In this document: one piece after another, positions 17,564 through 29,227 of the stretch
Numbering within the stretch: position 1 is the first letter of the stretch
How the letters are laid out: each line of letters opens with the position of its first letter
Assembly (NCBI GenBank): GCA_005406025.1
Contig: BGZK01001455.1
Span: 1 to 64,000 of the forward strand
DNA length: 64,000 nt
Direction: 5' to 3'
From: Eumeta japonica
Lineage: Eukaryota > Arthropoda > Insecta > Lepidoptera > Psychidae
The notes under the pieces: generated by a model
What the model saw: only the letters and a program-made list of their open reading frames with translations
Told to the model about the DNA's origin: nothing
Database searches by the model: none
Made by a program: the position numbers and the translations under genes

Positions 17564-17609
17564 GAGCTCGTTCCCACTTGTCGGGTGTCGGATCCGTATA
17601 TTAAACGGA
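17564..17609 (+). repeat. Left TIR of Harbinger 1
   Basis: Starts GAGCTCGTTCCCACTTGTCG and matches the right TIR at 45 of 46 positions. TTA duplication directly to its left. Confidence 0.93.
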
Positions 17610-17924
17610 GATTATAGTGGCAGAACAATACATATGAAGCTATTCACACTTATCGGAAACCGATTTTGTGTCGGCTCCGACAAGAAATGTCGAGTGTTTT
17701 GCCAGCCCTCTACGCCCGGAAAAAAATCGTGTCGGATCTCGCTCGCCTATGATGAAGAATGGCGCTGTTCACATTCGTCTGATGTCGGGGCCGATAGCCC
17801 TCTCCTCGCTACCCCTCATTCCGTTCGTGCGGACATCGTCGCTGTGATCGCGGACACACACATCTCGACGCGCGAGCAGAGTTGTTGTGTTTTTTATTGT
17901 GCGCACGTTTGGTGATTTGTAGTA

Positions 17925-18105
17925 ATGGAAAGAAATATCGACCCCGAACAATTGATCACACTAGTTCAGGAAAGAGGTGTCCTTTGGGACAAAACTCTAA
18001 ATGATTATAAAGATAAGCAACTGAAAATAGCTGCTTGGCGGGAAGTTTGCTGCCTACTCATACCTGATTTTGTCAATTTGGACGAAAAAGAAAGACAATC
18101 ATGTG
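17925..18105 (+). CDS. MADF-domain protein of Harbinger 1, exon 1
   Basis: Starts MERNIDPEQLITLVQERGVL, the first helix of a MADF (Myb/SANT-like) DNA-binding domain, and continues 'AWREVCCLL'. A consensus donor (G|GTAAGTG) ends the exon at 18105 in phase 1. Exon 2 at 19130 fits this phase. In animal PIF/Harbinger elements the second ORF is a SANT/Myb-like partner that helps the transposase reach the nucleus and the TIRs. The intron (18106-19129) contains the transposase's large exon on the other strand. Confidence 0.85.
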
Positions 18106-18160
18106 GTAAGTGTTTGAAGTTATTTATTTAATAATATACGTAAAATTAAAAACATAAATA

Positions 18161-19067
18161 TTAACCATGCGCTTCTGGTTGCCAAGGCACCGAGCCTATT
18201 GTTGAAATGAAGTAGTTTGCAAATTCAGACCGTATATCATTTGCAATAGGACCACCACGTGGATTACAGTTTTGCAGTTGTACTTGTTCTTGCATCGGAT
18301 TTTCTGCCGCATACTGAATATCTTCAAAGTTCAGACCGTCCTTTTCTCTTACAAAATTGTGTAATACTGTACACGCTTTTACAATTTCGATAGATGTATC
18401 TGGGTGGACATCCAGAGGCCGATGAAATATTCTCCATTTATTTGCTAAAATGCCGAATGCGCATTCAACGTACCTTCTTGCCCGACTTAAGCGATAGTTA
18501 AATATTTTTTTCATGTGGTCCAAATGAGTGCCTCCAAAAGGTCTTAACAAATTTGTTGACAGAGGGAAAGCCTCATCGCCCACGAGAACATAAGGCATAT
18601 CATTTTGAAGTGTTGCATGTAGAGGCCTTGGTTTTGGTATATTTAAACTACCATCATTCAGTTTCTTCCACATGGTCGACTCTTTGAATATTGAAGAATC
18701 GCATTCTTTTCCATACGAGCCAACACTCATAAAAATAAAACGATATTCTGCATCAACAACGGCTAGTAAAACAAATGAAAAATAATAATCTTTGTAATTA
18801 AAATACATCGAGCTACTATTATTTGGTTTCACCACTCTTATGTGCTTGCCATCAACAGCTCCTAGACAGTGCGGAAAGTTGGCTTTCATATCAAAACTTT
18901 TTGCAATTTCCAACCATTTGCTCTCATTATCAGGAATTTTCATGAACTCGTCTCTTAATACATCCCAGATAGTGGAACTAATTTCTTTGCAGATTTTACT
19001 AATAGTTGACACACCAACTCTGTAACTATACTGCAATTCTTTGAAGGAACAACCCGATGCGCAATAT
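18161..19067 (-). CDS. Harbinger 1 transposase (HARBI1-like), exon 2
   Basis: Starts after TTTTACAG on the minus strand and gives 'YCASGCSFKELQYSYRVG' as the first residues after the junction. Contains the DDE_Tnp_4 motifs 'CLGAVDGKHIRV' (first Asp), 'VGDEAFPL' (second Asp) and 'RRYVECAFGILANKWRIF' (catalytic Glu), then 'VLHNFVREKDG'. It ends at the stop at 18161. With exon 1 the protein is about 400 residues, normal for HARBI1-like nucleases. The frame is intact across both exons. The enzyme cuts the TIRs and inserts at TWA sites. Confidence 0.92.
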
Positions 19068-19129
19068 CTGTAAAATAATAAAGTAGGTAAGATAATTAAC
19101 TTTTCTATATGTACCTATTGTAATTGCAG

Positions 19130-19820
19130 GTAAACTAGTATCTACAAAGTGGTCGAATCTACGAGATGCCTGGATGCGAGCAAATAAAAATGAAGTCAAA
19201 AAATCCGGACCAGGGGCTAAGTTTTCAAAGCCATATATATATATAAAGAACAGATGAGTTTTTTGCAAAAAGTAGCTGAGCCTAATTCCACTCATGATTC
19301 TGTCAAGAAGCGTCCAACAGATACATCTCCAGAGCCATCAGCGACCAATACAACAGATATCAATTCAGAGCTGCCATTACCAAGTACTTCCAAAAAGCCC
19401 AAGACCCTCGATGATAAAATGAGCCAGTTTTTAGATAGCAGGCTACAGTCAGACAGAAGTAACGATCATCCAATGCTCTCTTTTTTGAAAGGAGTTCTGC
19501 CGAGTGTTACGTCTTTTGACGATAGTGAAACTTTAGAGTTTCAATCAGGCGTGCTGTCACTGATTCAAAACATTAAAAAGCAGCGTGAAAGTCGTTTATA
19601 CTCATCAAATTATGGTTGGCATTCACAGTCAAGAGATCACGTGCAACAATCTGTATATTCGTCACAAAACCAGAATGTGCACTCACCATTAAACCAGAAT
19701 ACCTTACCTTCAATTGGATATGGATATTCGACACGCCAACTCGTTGAACCAGCATCACCTACTTTGTCACAACATTCAAGTATTACTCAAGATTCGGACT
19801 TAGATTTTAGCAATATTTAA
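19130..19820 (+). pseudogene. MADF-domain protein of Harbinger 1, exon 2 (2-bp frame break)
   Basis: Begins after TTGCAG. The spliced frame gives 'LVSTKWSNLRDAWMRANK' and 'KKSGPGAKFSKPYIY', completing the MADF domain. At the TA microsatellite (about 19234-19246) the frame then runs into a stop at 19256. The continuation 'MSFLQKVAEPN' is in another frame, and loss of one TA unit would restore continuity. The rest (to the stop at 19820) is Ser/Thr/Gln-rich and acidic at the end ('QDSDLDFSNI'). The length is typical for MADF partners. The break may be a real repeat-length mutation, a polymorphism or an assembly slip. Confidence 0.8.
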
Positions 19821-19949
19821 CTTCACTAATTTGTTTTCGAAATTATAAAAAAAATTAAAGTTATTTCTTTCAATAAATACTTATATGTGAACTAAAAGTG
19901 ACTGTTTTATCTTTTCCTTTATACAAATTAATATGTATAATTATATTAC

Positions 19950-20248
19950 CTTAGAAATATCGCCAACCTTTCTCCAGTACAAATGCAGTCTCTAAATCTT
20001 GTATTTTGGTAGTTTATGCTCACTGATATTTGAGCCAATAGATGGTTGAATGTAGTTATCGACATTCTAAAATAATTGAAAAACTTAATTTCGTCACTCC
20101 TCAATTCTGTTATTAAATTCTGAAATGTTCCCAAACTAAATCTTTCTCTCAGGATTGGGTGCACCCAATATTTTCTTTCCTTGACTGTCTTTCGTGGTTT
20201 TCTTCTTAAATAATAATAAAGTAATTCGTCGACGTCCATCGTGCACAA
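19950..20248 (-). CDS. Harbinger 1 transposase, exon 1
   Basis: Starts MCTMDVDELLYYYL (a second Met at codon 4 is possible) and holds the typical 'KYWVHPILRERFSLG' and 'FFNYFRMSITTFNHLLAQI'. It ends 'ERLAIFLR' at a donor AAG|GTAATA in phase 2, matching exon 2 at 19067. The intron (19068-19949) contains MADF exon 2 on the plus strand. Start lies about 140 bp inside the right TIR. Confidence 0.9.
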
Positions 20249-20343
20249 TCGCTTCGCGTAGAATGCTTAAAATTGACACTAGCTTCGACCGTGGCCGACA
20301 ACCGATTATTTATTAATCGTGTGTGTGAACAAAGGCGACGACA

Positions 20344-20389
20344 TCCGATTAATATACGGATCCGACACCCGACAAGTGGGAACGAGCTC
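20344..20389 (-). repeat. Right TIR of Harbinger 1
   Basis: Inverse of 17564-17609, ending GTGGGAACGAGCTC, followed by the TTA duplication at 20390-20392. Confidence 0.93.
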
Positions 20390-20479
20390 TTAGATGACAC
20401 ATCGACAAGACGTCTTCAATAGCTTCACCCCTTTCTACGTTCGAAGACAGTAGCGATGATGAAATCGTAAGTCATAATT

Positions 20480-21190
20480 ATTAACACGTTGAACGCCTCC
20501 CGGCCCACGGTGTGGGTCATGTGAGAAAACACGTACGAGCCAAGGCAAAATCTGATTTTCTTCAATTTTTAAAGTACTGTTTTTTTTTATCTAATCGATA
20601 AAAACTATAAAATTTGGCACTATCGATTAAAAATTTTAGATTTTTACGCTATAAATTTGTATTTAGGTAACTTGGCTCATCGGTAGGCCGCGTGGTCTCA
20701 TGAGAAGGAACAGCGATTTTGCTTGCGCATAGGTCGCGGGAGTCACGCTGCGGCCCACCCGTGCACTTTACAGCCCCTGCGCACGTGCGTCAAAATCACG
20801 CGCGTCAACTGGCGTTTGTTTAACGCGCGTCATGACGGTATATAGAAGTAAATGTGTGTCTGCTCATGATCGACAAAATAACGCGCGAGCTTTTACCGAC
20901 GCGAGTCGACTGCCGCCCTGCACGTCGACGCGCTTCATCGCCGAATCTCGCACGGCGTAGCAGTATAGGCTAGTTCGGACTAGGTTAGTGTTTTAGTTGA
21001 GTAGCGAGTAATTTAGTAGCTAAATGTGTCTGAACACCAAAAATTTAGTGGAGTAAATTAGTAAATAATTTAGTCGAGTCGATCCATTTTGTTCTATTTT
21101 TATCGGGCGAGTAGCGCCTCCCACCACGCGTCCGTGCTTACTAGTTCACCGGCTAAACAAGTCGGAACGTGTTGATTAGTCGAGTTCATT
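20480..21190. other. GC-richer promoter-like stretch, no gene recognised
   Basis: Starts beside a TTAA with 'cacgttgaacgcctcccgg', a style seen at some piggyBac-like ends, but no partner end is found. It contains several CG-rich words ('gcgcacgtgcgtc', 'cacgcgcgtc') and leads into the MADF exon at 21204. It could be the promoter and 5' UTR of that exon. Confidence 0.3.
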
Positions 21191-21203
21191 AGTGGCCACA
21201 AAA

Positions 21204-21397
21204 ATGTCGTTTCGCTGGAGCGAAGAAACAACTTGCAAAGTTTCCAAATACATTGAACGTGAATGTTTGTGGAATATTAAGTCCCCGCATTATAAAAACA
21301 AACAAATGAAACAATCCGCATACTTGGATTTAGAAAATTCAATGAAAATACCCGGATTTGATGAAAAGGAAATTAAATTGAAAATTAAAAACATCAG
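21204..21397 (+). pseudogene. Orphan MADF exon
   Basis: Reads MSFRWSEETTCKVSKYIERE, then 'LWNIKSPHYKNKQM' and 'GFDEKEIKLKIKNIR', a full first half of a MADF domain. It ends at a good donor (ATCAG|GTTAGT). It differs from the three Harbinger MADF proteins. No matching exon 2 follows: the next coding sequence (21478 on) is a hAT transposase. It may be the 5' exon of another TE gene or a captured host exon. Confidence 0.55.
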
Positions 21398-21477
21398 GTT
21401 AGTGTATAGTTTTATTAAGTATTTCAAAAGCGTATTTAATATTACGATACAATAAGCTCTTAATTGTTATTAAATGA

Positions 21478-22015
21478 CAGATTTGATTATCTAGAGAGTG
21501 AGGAAACTTTTATTTTATCAACAACACTAGATCCGCGCTATAAATTGCGTACGTTCTTTCTACAAGCCACAAGCATTGAGGCGAAAAGAATAATTATCTC
21601 CTTAATTACAAACGGGGATACACATGTCCCTGTCGAGCTTGTAGAGTCACAAAAAAAGCAAGATGAGACTTTCTCAGGTATCTCGAATGCTTGTGACAGT
21701 TTGTGTAAGCAGAAAAGGAGGAACCTTTATCAAACATGTCTAGTCATCCTGAGCAAGAAGAGGTGGAATCTTATACGAGATGTCCGAATATTCCAATGAA
21801 ACAAGATCCAAAGAACTATTGGAGCAATGAAGATAAATACCCAAAATTGAAAATGCTTGCACAAAATATTTATCTTACCCAATGAGTCTCCAGTTGCCTC
21901 AGAACGTCTTTTTTCAACTGCAGGCCTCATACAAAATTATTTGCAACAGATTATCTCCTAGTAATTTGAATAAACTTTGTTTCCTTAACAAAATCTTCCT
22001 AAAAGTGAACTTTGA
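21478..22015 (+). pseudogene. hAT transposase C-terminal half, frame-broken
   Basis: After a possible acceptor (AATGACAG) the frame reads 'FDYLESEETFILSTTLDPRY', the classical ZBED-type hAT region. It breaks near 21750 and resumes as 'QDPKNYWSNEDKYPKLKMLA', then a dimerisation region readable as 'FFNCRPHTKL' and 'INFVSLTK' in shifting frames. Three or more frame breaks. No DDE core remains in front, so only the C-terminal third is present. Its right terminus is probably at 22321. Confidence 0.75.
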
Positions 22016-22204
22016 TTATTAATATTGATTTAATTTGATTTGATTCCTTGATAAATGTTACCCAAATAAATGTTGATATGATATTTTACCTTTTTTCATT
22101 ATTTTTTTAATTTCCATTTTTGCCACACTTTACAGAATGGGTGTCTATTTATTCTATGTAACATAAGTAGGTAAGTTTATGTATATAAAGTACATCATTC
22201 TTTA

Positions 22205-22321
22205 TTTACTGAGTGTATTTACTACTAAGCCATCGATATCGGTATCGGTATCGCCGATTATTTTCCTCGATAATCGGTATCGGTATCGTATCGGCAAATT
22301 CATGTATCGTTACATCCCTAG
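22205..22321 (+). repeat. Right end of a hAT element (TATCGG-rich)
   Basis: Contains repeated 'tatcggtatcgg' words and a short inverted pair around 'gccgattattttcctcgataatcgg', ending 'gtatcgttacatccctag' at 22321. Read in reverse it begins CTAGGGATGTAACGATAC, which is a common hAT terminus. It probably belongs to the hAT fragment at 21478-22015. No left partner was found. 22322-22667 is AT-rich with no gene. Confidence 0.55.
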
Positions 22322-22927
22322 TTATAGGAAATATGTTTTTTTCCTTTTTTTTGTTTTTATCAAACAGTTCATGCTTAGAATTTTTGGATATATATATATC
22401 CAAAAACTCTAATATCTTTCTATATCTGTGCATCTTGCTTTTATACATATAACCGAGTTTGTTAATTTAAAAAATCTACTTTTTATTTAAATAATAAGAA
22501 ATACTTATAAATGTTCATTGAAGATAAGAAGATATTATGTTGTTTTTTATGTTAATTAGGATAGGTACTAATTTTGTTCAACAAATGTCATAATTATGTT
22601 TTCTTTACAAGCAAGTAATTCTAAAAACTGATTACAAAGGAAAGATTGCTTTACATTTTTTAATGTATAAGCGCTCGTTCAGACACGGCGGGAACCGCGC
22701 GATTATAGAATCGCATGGAAATCGCGCGGGTCTTATTTATATGAGTTAGTTAGTATCGTTCAGACATAACCGCGCGGTTAATCAAGCCGCGCGGTTACCG
22801 CAACCCAACCGCCAGAAAATAGAATCGCGCTGCTCCCGCGCGTTTCTATTACTATGGAGTCTTTACTTCGCGTTCAGTTGCGTTGCGGATACCGCGCGCT
22901 GAGCACGTCACTGTTCTTGAGTTCGCC

Positions 22928-23097
22928 ATGGATCGTTTCGACACTGAACTATTTATTGATGAGGTGGAGAAGAGACCTGCAATATGGGACATTCAGTGTG
23001 ATGATTACTCAAATAAAATTATCAAGAACCGAGCTTGGCAAGAGTTGGTGGAGATATTTGGAAATTGCGAAGACACGGTGGAAAAAGAATATTTTAA
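22928..23097 (+). CDS. MADF-domain protein of Harbinger 2, exon 1
   Basis: Starts MDRFDTELFIDEVEKRPAIW, then 'NRAWQELVEIFGNCED' and 'VEKEYF', ending at a donor AA|GTAAGT. The phase (2) does not match the best exon 2 frame by one base, so an indel or an alternative junction is implied. The upstream Met codons at 22854 and 22883 are in worse context or lie in the iteron region. The intron holds the transposase exon 2 on the minus strand. Confidence 0.75.
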
Positions 23098-23346
23098 GTA
23101 AGTAGGTTTATTCACCAAAAATAATTGACAGAATTATGTTATAATTATTGTTATGAAGCGTATATTATACTCTCCGTATACTTTAGGTACTTAAATAAAT
23201 ATAAACAAACTTCGGCTGCTTTATGCAGACATTTCGAGCATTTTTCAAATGAAGGTCACAACGGTATTACCATATTTCGTTTGTTTACATTTAGTTATGT
23301 ACCTAAACATTACAAGTACGGTATGTTGCAGCTATATCTTTGTGTC

Positions 23347-24212
23347 TTACCATGGAACACGCCCATCGTTCACAAAGTAATGAGCGAATTTATCTCTGAT
23401 ATTCAAAGATGACGGTGTCCCTCTTCCCGCATGCAAGGTATTGAGATTAGTCATGGGTGCATTATATAAAGTATCTTTAAATTTTAGACCATCTCTAGTC
23501 CGCACATAGTTATGTAGAACACAAGAAGCTTTTATTATAACTTCGGCAAAATCTATGTTTACATTTATAGGCCTATGAAAGATGCGCCATTTGCTCGCCA
23601 AAATACCAAAAGTGCACTCAATATTACGTCGGGCTCTCGATAACCTATAGTTAAAAATCCTTTTTTCATATGGTAAACATTTGCCTGAATATGGGCGCAT
23701 TAAATTTTCTGCTAAGCCGAAGGCTTCATCTCCAACTATAACATAAGGCATTGGTGTTAGGTCTACATTAGATATTGGTTTAGGTGTTGGTATGTTTAAT
23801 GATTTTTCTGTCAGGCGTTTATAAAAAACCGAATTTTTAAATATAGCAGAATCACTGCTTTTGCCATAAGCCCCAATATCAACATAAGTAAAGCAATAGT
23901 TGAGGTCGCAAAGTGCTAAGAGCACTATGGAAAAGTAATGTTTATAGTTATGATACAAAGAACCCGAATCAACAGGCTTTATAACTCGGATATGCTTGCC
24001 GTCTATAGCACCAATGCAATTTGGAAAATTTGCATATCTCAAAGTCTCGTGCTATTGTCTTCCAGATATCTTCAGTCGCTTCGGGCATGACTATGTTTAC
24101 CAACTTATTCCACAATGATTTACATACTTCGCGGACAATTCCAGTAATCGTCGATTTTCCTAGGCGATAATTGTAGCTTAGTTCTCCAAATGAACAACCC
24201 GTACCAAGATAT
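23347..24212 (-). pseudogene. Harbinger 2 transposase, exon 2 (one frameshift)
   Basis: Begins after TTTCAG with 'YLGTGCSFGELSYNYRLG' and 'ITGIVREVCKSLWNKLV'. A one-base shift near 24043 separates this from 'YANFPNCIGAIDGKHIRV'. The rest is continuous: second Asp in 'VGDEAFGLAENL', catalytic Glu in 'RRNIECTFGILASKWRIF', then 'VLHNYVRTRDG', ending 'YFVNDGRVPW'. A HARBI1-like DDE nuclease of normal length apart from the shift. Confidence 0.88.
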
Positions 24213-24251
24213 CTGAAACAAGAATATTATTAATAATGTTATTATTTTTAG

Positions 24252-24933
24252 GTACACAACTCCAAAAAAAATGGAAAAACATACGAGATTGCTACAATAA
24301 AGAATACAAAAAAGAAAAAACAACTCCTTCTGGTTCAGGTGCTCGTAAAGGAGCCCGATATATGTATTTTTCAAGATTATCTTCCCTGCAGAATTGTGTA
24401 AGTAATAAAGACACTACAACTAATATTGAAGAACAGAATGAAAGGCAAAGTGAGGAGACAAGTGAACTAAACGCCAATGCAACCGAAGCCACTGAAATAC
24501 GTCCCCTAAACGTAAGAAAACACAAGTGCCAGAAGAAAAAATAGCTGTTTTAATAGAAAAAGTATCGAGTCACGAAAACATTTTCAGAATGAACTTCAAG
24601 AAAATAGTATTACCAGCAAGATGACGACAAACTCTTTGTTTGTCGTTATATAAAGAACTCATAAAAGTACCAGAAAATAGGCGTTTAGCAACCAAAATTG
24701 AATTACTTCAAGTGATACAAAAAGGACATAGCTTACCACCCCCTGTTCGCTACAATACTCAGCAGATGTCACCTACGTATTGGCAAGGACAACAGTATAC
24801 AAGCCCGCAAGGATATTTTACTACATCTGGATCATCTCCTCCTGTTCCGGCACCGTCACCATCGCAATTTAGTTCTGGCTCTCAGTCCTCTACAGTTACA
24901 GAAAATATTTATGCTGATTTTGAAGAACAATAA
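24252..24933 (+). pseudogene. MADF-domain protein of Harbinger 2, exon 2, frame-broken, with BESS motif
   Basis: After TTTTTAG the frame gives 'TQLQKKWKNIRDCYNKEY' and 'GARYMYFSRLSSLQ', completing the MADF domain. A stop at 24541 interrupts. Beyond it the continuation 'LFVLSLYKELIKVPENRRLA' with 'KIELLQVIQKG' is a BESS motif, the usual C-terminal interaction motif of MADF proteins. A Pro/Ser/Gln-rich tail ends 'IYADFEEQ' at 24933. One or two small indels account for the breaks. Confidence 0.75.
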
Positions 24934-24993
24934 AATAAATAAATAAATAAAAAAAATAAATAAATAAATTAATAAACAATAAATAAATCTTAC

Positions 24994-25280
24994 CTTAAAG
25001 TTATTACGAGTTTCTCTTCCGGTGACACGCTTGGCCTCAAATGCGTTTCAGAGCATGAAATATCTTGCCTGATCAGTTCAATTAGTTCATCAAAAGATTT
25101 TATTGACATTCTCAAATAGTCAAAAAATTTGTTATCATACATTCTTAATTTGGGATATAATGTTACGAACTGACCATGTACTAGTCGGTCACGTAATATT
25201 GGATGCACCCAATACCGCCTTTTTCTTTTCTTTTTTTTGAGGAGCAACCACAGTAAACACACTTCTTCGTCGACCTCCAT
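24994..25280 (-). CDS. Harbinger 2 transposase, exon 1
   Basis: Starts MEVDEEVCLLWLLLKKKKRK, contains 'YWVHPILRDRLVHGQF' and 'FFDYLRMSIKSFDELIELI', and ends 'EEKLVITLR' at a donor AAG|GTAAGA in phase 2, fitting exon 2 at 24212. An in-frame upstream Met (25343) exists, but the internal Met matches the other two elements ('MDVDELL', 'MFSSDSD'). The intron contains MADF exon 2 on plus. An (AAAT)n-like tract at 24930-24987 lies between the two genes. Confidence 0.85.
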
Positions 25281-25409
25281 TTTGAAACTGACGCTAACCC
25301 GCACGAAATCGCATACTAACCGCGCGTGTCTGAATAGCTTCACAATTTTGCGGTTTGAAACCGCGCGATTCGTAAACGCACGATTCCCGCATGTCTGAAC
25401 GCAGGCTAA

Positions 25410-25970
25410 GACTGATTATAAAATAAAAAAATTGGTTGCCTGTAAAGTCGGTATACGGGCGAAAGTTTTACGTGACAACGACTTTGAATGGTAAAATCAT
25501 TTTAATGTGAATATTCATTCGTATAGTAGGAAGAAGGATGAAATAATAGTAACAATTTAAAACATTTATTTATACAAAGAATTATATTTAAAACATTAAT
25601 TTATACAAAGAATCTCGCACTGAATTTCATATTAACAAAATTTTATTTTACCTTTACACATACATACGTATTTATATACAAATATACATACAATAACTTG
25701 CAATACATTTGCAAGCTATGCACTAATTCTCTAGTGCTGCGCGCGCGGCAGACCGATCATAGTTGAGTGGGAGAGAGACGCAAGGCATTCGGCGGGCCTC
25801 TCTCTCGTTCGGTGACTCATCGTTACGTTACCGAGCGTTACACTTTTTCATAAGTGACTCCCAGCCGCAACCTAATTTAAGACGTTGTCACGTCAAAAAA
25901 TAATATATAATCAAGGTTTTTATTTCATGTAGTTCCCCCGCATGCATATTATTGAGAAATACATACAACG
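25410..25970. other. Spacer with no gene recognised
   Basis: Contains a 2-copy direct repeat 'aaaacattNatttatacaaagaa' (25559-25610) and a purine/pyrimidine-biased stretch with 'gagtgggagagagacgc' near 25763. No coding potential is seen on either strand. Confidence 0.5.
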
Positions 25971-25974
25971 TAAG

Positions 25975-26082
25975 AAGCCGGATAGTCGGCGCTCTTTGCC
26001 GATTAGTCGCCGACTAATCGACGACTACAATAGTGGCTGGATAGTCGGCTTTGCCGACTAGTCGGGACATCTCTAGTAATAA
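25975..26082 (-). repeat. hAT terminus (solo end)
   Basis: Read on the minus strand from 26082 it begins CTAGAGATGTCCCGACTAGT, followed by alternating 'cggcgactaatcg' words, a well-known style of hAT ends in arthropods. No partner terminus or transposase is adjacent. 26083-26240 shows nothing recognisable. Confidence 0.5.
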
Positions 26083-26241
26083 CTTATTCACTGTCTCACA
26101 ACCATTGGCATATAACATCATTGCTTATCGTATTTGTTGGCCAGTCTAATTCACAAATATATTCAATTTTCTGAGGAATCCAGTTATATAGAAAAGAAAT
26201 TTATTCAAAAAAATGTGAAAACATTGACTCTTGGCCTGGAT

Positions 26242-26255
26242 CAGTGGCGGCGTAA
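26242..26255 (+). repeat. hAT terminus interrupted by Harbinger 3
   Basis: CAGTGGCGGCG followed by TAA. After the Harbinger 3 insertion the sequence resumes at 29228 as TAAGGCGTGGGCGACGTGGG. The joined word (CAGTGGCGGCGTAAGGCG) looks like a hAT 5' end, so the Harbinger inserted 11 bp inside it. The rest of the hAT left end is in 29228-29300. Confidence 0.5.
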
Positions 26256-26500
26256 AGGCGGAAACATACTTACGTGTCGTGGCGTGTCGTGGCGCGCCAG
26301 GAGCATATCGGTTTCATACATTTAATATGGTTAGGGACATATTTGCGTGTCGTGTCGTGACGCAAAGCGTTCTGTCGTGGCGCGGACTGCTCGCCACCGA
26401 TTGCGCCAGAGCGGTGGTGGGGTTATGGCGCGACACGGCACAACAGACAAATGTGTTTCTATACGGCGCGTGGCTCGTGGCGCAAACATCTAGCGGGTTT
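26256..26500 (+). repeat. Harbinger 3 left TIR and TGTCGTGGCG iterons
   Basis: At least six copies of GTGTCGTGGCG or close variants on both strands (near 26275, 26286, 26345, 26372 and 26430). The matching right-end block is 29125-29227. Such subterminal motifs are typical binding sites for the transposase or its Myb-like partner. Confidence 0.7.
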
Positions 26501-26515
26501 AAATTTTAATTTAAA

Positions 26516-26644
26516 ATGACTGACGATCTCATAGAACTCGTACGCCAAAGAAAAGTTATATATGATTCTAAGTGTAAGATTACAAGGATCATTTCATGAG
26601 AAATGCTGCTTGGGAAGAAATCGCTGAAATCTTAGAACAACCAG
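26516..26644 (+). pseudogene. MADF-domain protein of Harbinger 3, exon 1 (one frameshift)
   Basis: Starts MTDDLIELVRQRKVIYDSKC. A one-base loss at about 26578 (a single G where a pair is expected) shifts the frame. Past it the next frame gives 'MRNAAWEEIAEILEQP', ending at donor CCAG|GTAAGT at 26644. The first MADF helix region is the same as in elements 1 and 2. Confidence 0.8.
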
Positions 26645-26761
26645 GTAAGTCAATAAAGTTGTATTTTACTTTATTATTTATTTGAAAAGAGATAATGAAT
26701 AAATATACAAAATTAACAATTAATACTATTTAAGAATTTTGTCTACCTCGGCGAATAATTT

Positions 26762-27653
26762 CTATTTGCCATGGTACTCTCCTTCTGGACTAATAAAATA
26801 CTCTTTGTATTTCTCTGACATAAACAGCGTTTTTGATGGGTTTCTTGGTAAAGATTCAATATTAATTAGACAGTCGATGTTGCTGCTATGGTCAGTAGAA
26901 TCCATCAAATTTTCTTCAGGGAGCAATGTTTCTGTTCTTAAAAAATTATGTAAGCAGCAGGCAGCTAGCACAATCTTGTCTACCATGTCCGGTTGGACTT
27001 GCATAGGTCCATGAAATACACGAAATCGAGCCCGTAAAATACCAAACGCATTTTCTACACACCGGCGTGCACGTGATAAGCGGTAATTAAATATTTTATT
27101 TGCATCATTGTTAACTAGCTTGTCTTTGTGATAAGGTTTTAACAAATATGGTTTCAACGGGAATGCTGCATCAGCAACAATAGTGTATGGCATAGGTTGT
27201 GAGTTTACACTCAGTGGTTCATCCTGTGGTACATTTAATGCTTTTTGCTCAAATAATTTTCCCATCAAAGATTTCTCGTATATGCCACCGTCACTGTTTC
27301 GACCATACGCACCTACGTCAATCATGATAAATTTGTATTGAGCATCAACTAATGCAAGTAAAACTATGGAGTGTTCTTGTTTATAGTTATAGAAAGTAGA
27401 ACCTGCGTTTATAGGACAAATTATGTTAACGTGTTTGCCATCTAATGCTCCAATACAATTTGAAAAATGCCAAAATTGTTTAAAGTTATTTGCAATATCT
27501 TTCCACATTTGTTCAGAAGGTGTAGGCATTACAATAGGTGCCATATTTTTCCAAATGGCTTCACACACTTCTTGTACTATAACTCTCACAGTAGAAAATC
27601 CCATTCGATAGTTGAAGGCCAATGATCGAAAAGTGTTTCCAGTAGCTAAAAAT
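26762..27653 (-). CDS. Harbinger 3 transposase (HARBI1-like), exon 2
   Basis: Starts after TTTTCAG with 'FLATGNTFRSLAFNYRMG'. Carries 'CIGALDGKHVNI' (first Asp), 'VADAAFPLKPYLLKPY' (second Asp) and 'RRCVENAFGILRARFRVF' (catalytic Glu), then 'CCLHNFLRTET', ending 'EGEYHGK' with the stop at 26762. The frame is uninterrupted. The DDE_Tnp_4 fold is the same as in the other two elements, but the sequence is as different from them as they are from each other. Confidence 0.92.
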
Positions 27654-27690
27654 CTGAAAAGAAATAAACAATTATTATTATTTGTTACAG

Positions 27691-28547
27691 TAAATAAATG
27701 CAAGGATGACTGGGCAAAACTAAGGAATGCTTTCGCCAGCGCTTTGAAGCGACGAAGGAATAAGAAAAGTGGGCAGGCTGCGGCGGCGTTGGTGCCCTGG
27801 AAATATGAAGAAAGCTTGAGTTTTCTTCTTCCTTATATGGAATGTAGAAGTACAAAAACAAATGTGACAACTACACCAGAATCACCACCCACAGAAGAGT
27901 CTCCCGACGAAAGTCTTCCAGAAAGTCCCAGTACTTCACGCAGTCAATCACAATCCAGTTCCTCACGTGGAAAACCTAATAAAGAACCCAAATTACAAGA
28001 GTTGTATGATTTGATGAAATCTTCCCAAGATTTAAGACGTCAGAAGCAAAATTTTAGACAAGACATGGACGAAACTGATCTATTTTTCCTTAGCATGAGT
28101 AAAGAATTAAAAGCGCTGCCAAAACTTGAACAAACAAAAATAAAATTAGACTTGCACACCGCTATTTCCCAAGCATTAATACGGCAATTGGAACACAGAG
28201 ACAAAATTTTAAAAACGCCTATAAAAATAACAACTCAAAGATTCATCCAATCAACTCCACAACATCAGTCCTCAACATACATCCAAACTACTGCAAACGC
28301 TGAATTACCAATATACAACCAGTCACCCTCACACGATCAGTCACCCACATATATCGAGTTATCAATTCCTACTACATCTCGCGCACAAAATCATGCTGAT
28401 TCTTCAACATACATCCAAACTACTGCAGACGTTCATCAATCACTAACATGCACCCAGTCACCTATACACGCTCAGTCACCCACATATATCCAGTCATCAT
28501 CATTTCCATCCGATCACACTCAAAACCTGTTGTTTCAGATAACATGA
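27691..28547 (+). CDS. MADF-domain protein of Harbinger 3, exon 2, with BESS motif
   Basis: Begins after TTGTTACAG with 'NKCKDDWAKLRNAFASALKR' and 'WKYEESLSFLLPYM', the rest of the MADF domain. A Ser/Pro-rich linker follows. A BESS motif 'DLFFLSMSKELKALPKLEQT' lies at about 28077-28136. The tail contains about six degenerate repeats around 'QSPTYIQSS/TTAN', seen as 'acatacatccaaactactgc' twice. The frame is open to the stop at 28547. It lies wholly inside the transposase intron. Confidence 0.85.
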
Positions 28548-28770
28548 AAGCATACTATGACAGTATAAATTTTGAAGATGAATAAATTCAAAATAATGGT
28601 TAAACTAATGATTTAATGATAAACAGATAATTTTTAACTAATAAATAAGACAGCAGGTTGTGATTACTTAAACGTTGATTTCATATAAGTTAGTTTCATG
28701 ATAAATGATTGTTAACCTAACTCGTGCAACAGCACAGTCAATTATATTTTTCAAAGAAAATAAAACTTAC

Positions 28771-29079
28771 CTTAAACATAACGCAAGTCTTTCTTTAGTA
28801 CCTATGGGTTCACGAAATTTCGTATGTACTTTTTATGTCTCCTTCAATCAGCGAATGGATTTCCTCATATTGTGCTTGGTTCATCCTAAAGTACTGATGA
28901 AATTTCTCATCGTCACTCTCCAGTTCTCTAACAAGACGATGAAATTCACCTTTGTCTTGTCTCCTCTGTTTATAGGGTGAACCCAGTATCTTCTTTTCTT
29001 TTTTGCTCTTAAGAAGTTTCATTGCTAAGAGAAATTGAAGGTCTTCATCAAAATCACTATCCGAATCAGAAGAAAACAT
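28771..29079 (-). pseudogene. Harbinger 3 transposase, exon 1 (one frameshift)
   Basis: Starts MFSSDSDSDFDEDLQFLLAM, then 'RELESDDEKFHQYFRMNQAQ'. Near 28830, in an A5 run, the frame runs to a stop. The next frame continues 'KFREPIGTKERLALCLR' to the donor AAG|GTAAGT at 28771. The junction with exon 2 (27653) gives the family-typical 'LCLR|FLATG'. Confidence 0.85.
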
Positions 29080-29227
29080 TATTTATGTTTGAACGCTGCA
29101 AAGGTTCGTCAAGTACTGTTCAGAAATAACGCCAGAGTACGCCACGACACGACACTTTAGTGTGCACACTCACCGTCACGACAGTAATCGTCACGACACG
29201 CCACGACACATAAATATGTTTCCGCCT

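What the first reader, a model, noticed from the sequence alone, without database searches (positions are those of the whole stretch)
17564..29227. Interlocked antisense gene pair with back-to-back 3' splice sites, conserved in three Harbinger elements
In all three Harbinger elements the MADF gene (+) and the transposase gene (-) each have two exons. Each gene's exon 2 lies inside the other's intron. The two 3' splice sites sit back to back across a short segment that is intronic on both strands: 19068-19129 (62 bp), 24213-24251 (39 bp) and 27654-27690 (37 bp). The proteins are highly diverged, so the layout appears to be under constraint. It could force mutually exclusive or balanced expression of the two partners, or produce long sense-antisense duplexes that feed small-RNA pathways.
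Basis: partly seen in the sequence, partly recalled or inferred. Interest (0 to 1): 0.75.

Follow-up and report, generated by a model that had tools for sequence, protein, structure and literature searches.

The report
Interlocked gene pair in Harbinger transposons
In a moth genome, most PIF/Harbinger jumping genes examined carry their two genes on opposite strands with each gene's second half inside the other's intron, an old layout found even where both introns sit at different places in the proteins.

Summary
Spliced homologues cross the transposase joint in 16 of 16 and the MADF joint in 10 of 12 aligned proteins. All three copies are frame-broken.

Survey of the same 700-Mb genome (probably Eumeta, a bagworm moth): of 28 Harbinger elements read, 22 are interlocked (18 families), 4 partial but compatible, 2 not interlocked. 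The short gap between the 3' splice sites is not conserved (29-437 bp).

New: two interlocked classes with both introns at different coding positions. One splits a transposase Arg codon and the MADF domain; the other lies about 43 codons later in the transposase and after the MADF domain. They separate at 100/99 in a tree. Related ISL2EU-like loci are plain tail-to-tail (17 of 17 with a YqaJ-like motif, of 21).

Most likely meaning: an inherited 'mutual intron lock' keeping two co-required proteins inseparable. Regulatory and small-RNA roles are untested.

The parts
17564..20389 (.). E1, PIF/Harbinger element, TIR GAGCTCGTTCCCAC.., TSD TTA
   Evidence: TIR 47 bp at 98%
17925..18105 (+). E1 MADF gene exon 1, donor G|GTAAGT, phase 1
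18161..19067 (-). E1 transposase exon 2 (DDE_Tnp_4)
19068..19129 (.). E1 segment intronic on both strands, 62 bp, CTG..CAG
19130..19820 (+). E1 MADF gene exon 2; frame broken at TA run near 19240
19950..20239 (-). E1 transposase exon 1, donor AG|GTAATA, phase 2 in the Arg codon
22671..25406 (.). E2, PIF/Harbinger element, imperfect TIR, TSD TAA
22928..23097 (+). E2 MADF gene exon 1; donor AA|GTAAGT, phase unclear
23347..24212 (-). E2 transposase exon 2, one frame break
24213..24251 (.). E2 segment intronic on both strands, 39 bp
24252..24933 (+). E2 MADF gene exon 2, frame broken
24994..25280 (-). E2 transposase exon 1
26256..29227 (.). E3, PIF/Harbinger element, TIR AGGCGGAAACATA.., TSD TAA
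26516..26644 (+). E3 MADF gene exon 1, frame broken, donor G|GTAAGT
26762..27653 (-). E3 transposase exon 2 (DDE_Tnp_4)
27654..27690 (.). E3 segment intronic on both strands, 37 bp
27691..28547 (+). E3 MADF gene exon 2 (second half of MADF; BESS hit below Pfam's cut-off)
28771..29079 (-). E3 transposase exon 1, frame broken

Best explanation
Each element is a two-gene PIF/Harbinger transposon read from both ends by convergent transcription. The MADF (DNA-binding partner) and transposase pre-mRNAs each span most of the element. Splicing removes an intron that holds the partner's second exon, giving two mRNAs that need hardly overlap. Shown from sequence: exon order, canonical splice sites, intron positions, and recurrence in two deep classes. 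Inferred: transcription and splicing themselves; that the layout arose from a plain tail-to-tail pair early in the MADF-Harbinger lineage; and that it is kept mainly as a mutual intron lock. Neither intron can be lost, by deletion or by copying from cDNA, without destroying the partner gene, so the two proteins needed together for transposition stay one inseparable unit.
For: Junctions canonical. Spliced homologues run without a gap across the transposase joint (16 of 16 aligned) and the class I MADF joint (10 of 12 aligned; P0134 and P0136 skip the start of exon 2). At the class II MADF joint the annotated protein P0137, on a contig of the same length as that of L049, has the same joint, and Leptidea and Adelges proteins align across it. 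22 of 28 elements interlocked. Transposase intron phase 2 in the same Arg codon in 17 of 17 complete class I elements (AG|A, AG|G or CG|G). TIRs flank the whole assembly in E1, E3, L029, L030, L031, L034, L042, L045, L047, L050. ISL2EU-like loci are tail-to-tail (17 of 17 with a YqaJ-like motif, of 21). L052 fits what losing the intron would cost: its transposase is one ORF missing 13 residues at the class II intron site and no BESS exon was found. Introns retained because of an antisense gene were proposed for Giardia (PMC6545626, abstract read). Both proteins are needed in rice and zebrafish elements (PMC9710019 section 3). The same paper's passages report transposase-only domesticated cockroach genes that keep a two-exon structure, one with an intron of 900-1500 bp in most species, a lead that fits an emptied lock.
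Against: No RNA data. L040, complete with TIR and TSD, is plain tail-to-tail, so the lock can be undone. Domesticated Anopheles pairs derived from such elements are adjacent and separate (PMC9710019 section 6). All DNA compared is from one genome. The MADF intron phase could be read in frame in only 11 of 17 complete class I elements. Three of the 22 rest on a weak HMM hit for one part (L019 MADF 2, L050 MADF 1, L043 transposase 1; E 0.01-0.03). The lock predicts stability but does not by itself show selection for it.
Confidence: 0.62

Rival explanations
1. Frozen accident: the layout was inherited from one ancestor and has no effect of its own; it persists because rearranging it is hard. (Overlaps with the lock idea, without any benefit.)
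For: Intron positions are uniform within each class where they could be read; class II is one side of a branch (100/99); gap length drifts from 29 to 437 bp.
Against: Both introns differ between the two classes while the topology is the same, so more than two frozen introns persisted.
Confidence: 0.45
2. Regulatory device: convergent transcription through the partner gene makes expression balanced or mutually exclusive, or limits it to cells that splice both introns.
For: By the exon and poly(A) hexamer positions the pre-mRNAs would overlap over about 1.8-2 kb (my estimate); in E1 a transposase poly(A) hexamer lies within 25 bp of the MADF donor.
Against: No expression data; plain tail-to-tail elements exist (L040, ISL2EU-like loci).
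Confidence: 0.15
3. Sense-antisense duplexes of the two pre-mRNAs feed piRNA or siRNA pathways, as silencing trigger or titration.
For: Complementary pre-mRNAs follow from the geometry.
Against: Mature mRNAs need hardly overlap; any TE with two converging promoters would do the same; no small-RNA data.
Confidence: 0.08
4. The two interlocked classes arose independently, each by swapping the 3' exons of a tail-to-tail pair, so the topology was favoured twice.
For: Different intron positions in both genes, and different transposase intron phase (class I phase 2; class II phase 0 where read); tail-to-tail relatives exist.
Against: One origin plus later relocation is fewer topological events; class II is a single clade side; L040 nests inside class II as a loss.
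Confidence: 0.25
5. The gene models are illusory and each locus is a pile of nested or neighbouring dead elements.
For: Copies in the window are broken.
Against: TIR/TSD enclose the whole assembly; the same order in 22 of 28 elements; spliced homologues match the joints.
Confidence: 0.02

Closest known systems
PIF/Harbinger elements with MADF protein (insects; PMC9710019)
   Same: DDE_Tnp_4 transposase plus MADF protein, TIRs, 3-bp duplication
   Different: In what I read (sections 3 and 6 and passages) the domesticated pairs are side by side, not interlocked; the main text has no hit for 'overlap', 'opposite' or 'antisense'. Its figures and supplements were not seen
Plant PIF/Harbinger (Medicago, PMC2213677; Phalaenopsis, PMC6327408; passages read)
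   Same: Two genes, TIR, 3-bp TSD, introns in the transposase
   Different: The two ORFs lie one after the other: orf1 upstream of the transposase in five elements and downstream in six; head-to-tail in PePIF1
ISL2EU group (THAP or HTH transposase + YqaJ exonuclease; description from PMC9179366, passage)
   Same: Harbinger-like transposase and a second gene on the opposite strand
   Different: Plain tail-to-tail, not interlocked, in the 17 of 21 loci where a YqaJ-like motif was found by regular expression; that these loci are ISL2EU rests on that motif and on a THAP-like exon read by eye in L053
Nested and overlapping host gene pairs in Metazoa (PMC2330155, passages) and antisense-overlapped introns of Giardia (PMC6545626, abstract)
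   Same: Opposite-strand genes sharing introns; intron kept because of the gene on the other strand
   Different: There one gene lies inside the other or the overlap is single; here nesting is reciprocal, inside a mobile element, and recurs in 18 families of one genome

Membership tests
PIF/Harbinger superfamily | DDE_Tnp_4 transposase | tested here: met
   PF13359 at 2.7e-33 to 1.6e-34 in E1-E3
PIF/Harbinger superfamily | TIRs and 3-bp TWA target duplication | tested here: met
   E1 TTA, E2 TAA, E3 TAA
PIF/Harbinger superfamily | Second gene with Myb/SANT/MADF domain | tested here: met
   PF10545 in both exons of E1 and E2 and exon 2 of E3; E3 exon 1 weakly by own HMM
PIF/Harbinger superfamily | Both proteins needed and interacting | not testable with these tools
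   Reported for rice and zebrafish elements (PMC9710019 section 3)
ISL2EU group | YqaJ exonuclease partner gene | tested here: not met
   No YqaJ family in the Pfam scan of ten ORFs of E1-E3; the partner is MADF
[quoted passage not shown]
   Only exon 2 of each gene lies in the other's intron
Interlocked Harbinger architecture (as defined here) | Order MADF1+ / T2- / MADF2+ / T1- | tested here: met
   22 of 28 elements, 4 partial, 2 not
Interlocked Harbinger architecture (as defined here) | Junctions used in RNA | not tested
   Only spliced protein models

The most novel reading that the evidence does not exclude
The interlock is a topology that selection preserves or re-creates: it survived relocation of both introns, or evolved twice. 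One route: a tail-to-tail element formed a tandem dimer, splicing joined exons across the dimer, and complementary loss left MADF exon 1 and transposase exon 2 of one copy with MADF exon 2 and transposase exon 1 of the other. Loss of the alternative duplicate of the middle exons would give class I or class II. By parsimony many animal MADF-Harbinger elements, frog and crustacean ones of the class I side included, would be interlocked; none outside this genome was seen.
Probability: 0.3. Interest if true: 0.8.

Novelty: new variant of a known kind. Interest (0 to 1): 0.62.

Why it matters
It would be a reciprocal intron lock between two protein genes, recurring in 18 transposon families of one genome with two different intron sets. 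It gives a test bed for why introns persist, for how two-gene transposons avoid losing their partner gene, and for how opposite-strand genes trade places without overlapping exons. It may also trip annotation pipelines: some gene models of these genes lack internal stretches (P0001; P0134 and P0136).

Tried and rejected
Rejected: 'layout only in three close copies'; 'nested insertions of several elements' (TIR/TSD enclose the set); 'short gap is the conserved feature' (29-437 bp); my own first reading that a second class was not interlocked (note 3), corrected when the BESS exon was found inside the transposase intron. A second copy of the transposase middle part or of the MADF second half, as the dimer model might leave: none noticed among the HMM hits; no dedicated search was made.

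Led nowhere: viral-contig scans with three alignments and one genome-contig scan found no relative; these hold viral, bacterial and archaeal contigs, so little was to be expected. Casola 2007 and Kapitonov & Jurka 2004 are not held, so prior description there cannot be excluded. The genome search answered once and was then busy, so a larger coordinate-only census was not possible.
Full report
OBSERVATION. Three PIF/Harbinger elements lie at 17564-20389 (E1), 22671-25406 (E2) and 26256-29227 (E3), each with TIRs (imperfect in E2) and a 3-bp duplication TTA/TAA/TAA. In each, left to right, come MADF exon 1 (+), transposase exon 2 (-), a short stretch intronic on both strands, MADF exon 2 (+) and transposase exon 1 (-). 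Pfam finds the two halves of one MADF domain in the two plus exons of E1 and E2 and the second half in E3, and DDE_Tnp_4 in the minus exon (E1 exon 2 was not among the ten ORFs in its MADF frame and rests on alignment and on my HMM). E3 exon 1 is seen weakly by my own HMM. The transposase intron splits the same Arg codon (phase 2) in all three. The MADF intron is phase 1 in E1 and E3 and unclear in E2. All three copies carry frame breaks.

SPLICING SUPPORT. With exons joined, E1 transposase aligns without a gap at the joint to 16 of 16 homologues that I chose from the 120 listed of 6323 found, among them an annotated Spodoptera frugiperda protein (96% in the alignment, lacking an internal stretch elsewhere). 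E1 MADF finds 16 proteins. Of the 12 aligned, 10 run through the joint (Mythimna, Operophtera, Cydia, Diabrotica, Parnassius and others) and two Spodoptera exigua models skip the start of exon 2. These are protein models, not RNA reads, and some may come from intronless copies.

SURVEY. The window lies in G000, 700 Mb. DDE_Tnp_4 hits there: 150 scored of 1181 candidates. I read 44 loci of those 150 hits besides the three in the window: 20 top-ranked hits, 22 with domain length 492-504 bp taken before their layout was known, and two long-ORF hits. The other hits were not read. The 20 top hits and L053 are ISL2EU-like loci (21). Two of the 20 (L019, L020) also hold a neighbouring Harbinger element. 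The Harbinger set is 28: E1-E3, L019, L020, L029-L050, L052. By HMMs for both genes: interlocked with all four parts 22 (E1, E2, E3, L019, L020, L029, L030, L031, L032, L034, L035, L036, L039, L041, L042, L043, L045, L046, L047, L048, L049, L050), three of them with one weak part (L019, L043, L050; E 0.01-0.03); partial but compatible 4 (L033 only MADF 1 and T2; L037 no MADF seen; L038 no T1 seen; L044 BESS exon by ORF only); not interlocked 2 (L040, L052). Six near-copy pairs reduce the first 27 to 21 families (tree distances), 18 of which have an interlocked element.

TWO CLASSES. Class I (the window's) has the transposase intron in the Arg codon in 17 of 17 complete elements, codon AG|A, AG|G or CG|G. 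Its MADF intron lies inside the domain; read by eye it is phase 1 in 11 of the 17 (E1, E3, L019, L020, L029, L030, L034, L036, L039, L041, L047), and indels or stops leave it unclear in six (E2, L031, L032, L042, L045, L050). Class II (L035, L037, L040, L043, L044, L046, L048, L049): where the Arg codon could be read the frame runs through it (e.g. L035, L037, L048, L049). Its transposase intron lies about 43 codons later, phase 0 where read (L037, L040, L044, L046, L048; L035 and L043 not resolved; the donor of L049 is not GT). Its MADF exons before the lock hold the whole domain (two exons in L040 and probably L046) and the exon with the BESS-like region sits in the transposase intron, except in L040. 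The class II MADF joint of L049 is the same in the annotated protein P0137 (Eumeta japonica). Its contig length, 520378, equals that of L049's contig, so the genome is probably that bagworm. Leptidea and Adelges proteins align across the joint. Aphid, scorpion, shrimp, ant and crab proteins carry both parts in one chain with a variable linker. In the tree class II is one side of a branch at 100/99; the other side holds the 19 class I rows and 16 database homologues from moths, beetles, aphids, other insects, crustaceans and frogs. With L052 added the eight form a group at only 83/60, and together with L052 at 100/99.

GAP. Distance between the two 3' splice sites: class I 35-62 bp in nine copies (E1, E2, E3, L020, L029, L030, L031, L032, L042), 78-102 in three (L019, L036, L045), 199-437 in five (L034, L039, L041, L047, L050). 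Class II, acceptors chosen by eye, 29-38 in five (L035, L037, L043, L044, L048), 77 and 108 in two (L046, L049). Topology and intron positions are conserved, gap length is not.

EXCEPTIONS AND POLARITY. L040 with its left flank is one element with 41-bp identical TIRs and TSD TTA, all MADF exons on the left and both transposase exons on the right, with a transposase intron of about 460 bp in which no exon was found. Its sister L049 is interlocked (100/99), so a loss is simplest. L052 is on the class II side. Its transposase is one ORF lacking 13 residues at the class II intron site and no BESS exon was found, as a deletion through the lock would leave; an ancestral plain state is not excluded. 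In 17 of 21 ISL2EU-like loci a YqaJ-like motif was found by regular expression, each time on the opposite strand just downstream of the transposase. Plain tail-to-tail is thus the likely starting point, but the tree was rooted at the midpoint only.

MECHANISM. In E1-E3 poly(A) hexamers lie between each stop codon and the partner's donor site, so mature mRNAs need hardly overlap. The overlap is between pre-mRNAs. The simplest lasting effect is a lock: the intron of each gene carries an exon the other cannot lose. Balanced or exclusive expression and small-RNA production remain possible and untested.

LITERATURE. Searches (two returned nothing) were seen as listings. Read: PMC9710019 sections 3 and 6 and passages; passages of PMC9179366, PMC11893794, PMC2330155, PMC2528002, PMC10027918, PMC2213677 and PMC6327408; abstract of PMC6545626. 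None of this describes such a layout. Two key older papers are not held, so novelty is limited to what was searched.

Noticed in passing
window 21180-21799: A lone MADF-like exon (own HMM, E 6e-4) followed at once by an ORF that looks hAT-like (recalled), perhaps an older disrupted element.
   Followed up: no
window 22206-22466: Long ORFs on both strands made of CGATACC-like repeats.
   Followed up: no
window 25970-26060: Repeats of a gtcggcgact-like motif left of E3, possibly the end of another repeat.
   Followed up: no
G000 contig C51, 595-888 kb: Seven DDE_Tnp_4 hits within about 290 kb of one contig; another transposase N-terminal exon lies just outside the L040 element (L051:7-375).
   Followed up: partly
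L049; P0138, P0143: Its MADF protein is 90% identical to a Leptidea and 75% to an Adelges protein, and E1 transposase 66% to a ladybird's, which hints at horizontal transfer.
   Followed up: no
L052 (C1661:48700-52900): Transposase as a single 426-aa ORF after apparent loss of intron and partner exon; also lacks residues inside the DDE domain.
   Followed up: partly
P0001, P0134, P0136: Gene models of these genes in Spodoptera lack internal stretches, perhaps annotation artefacts of the odd layout.
   Followed up: no
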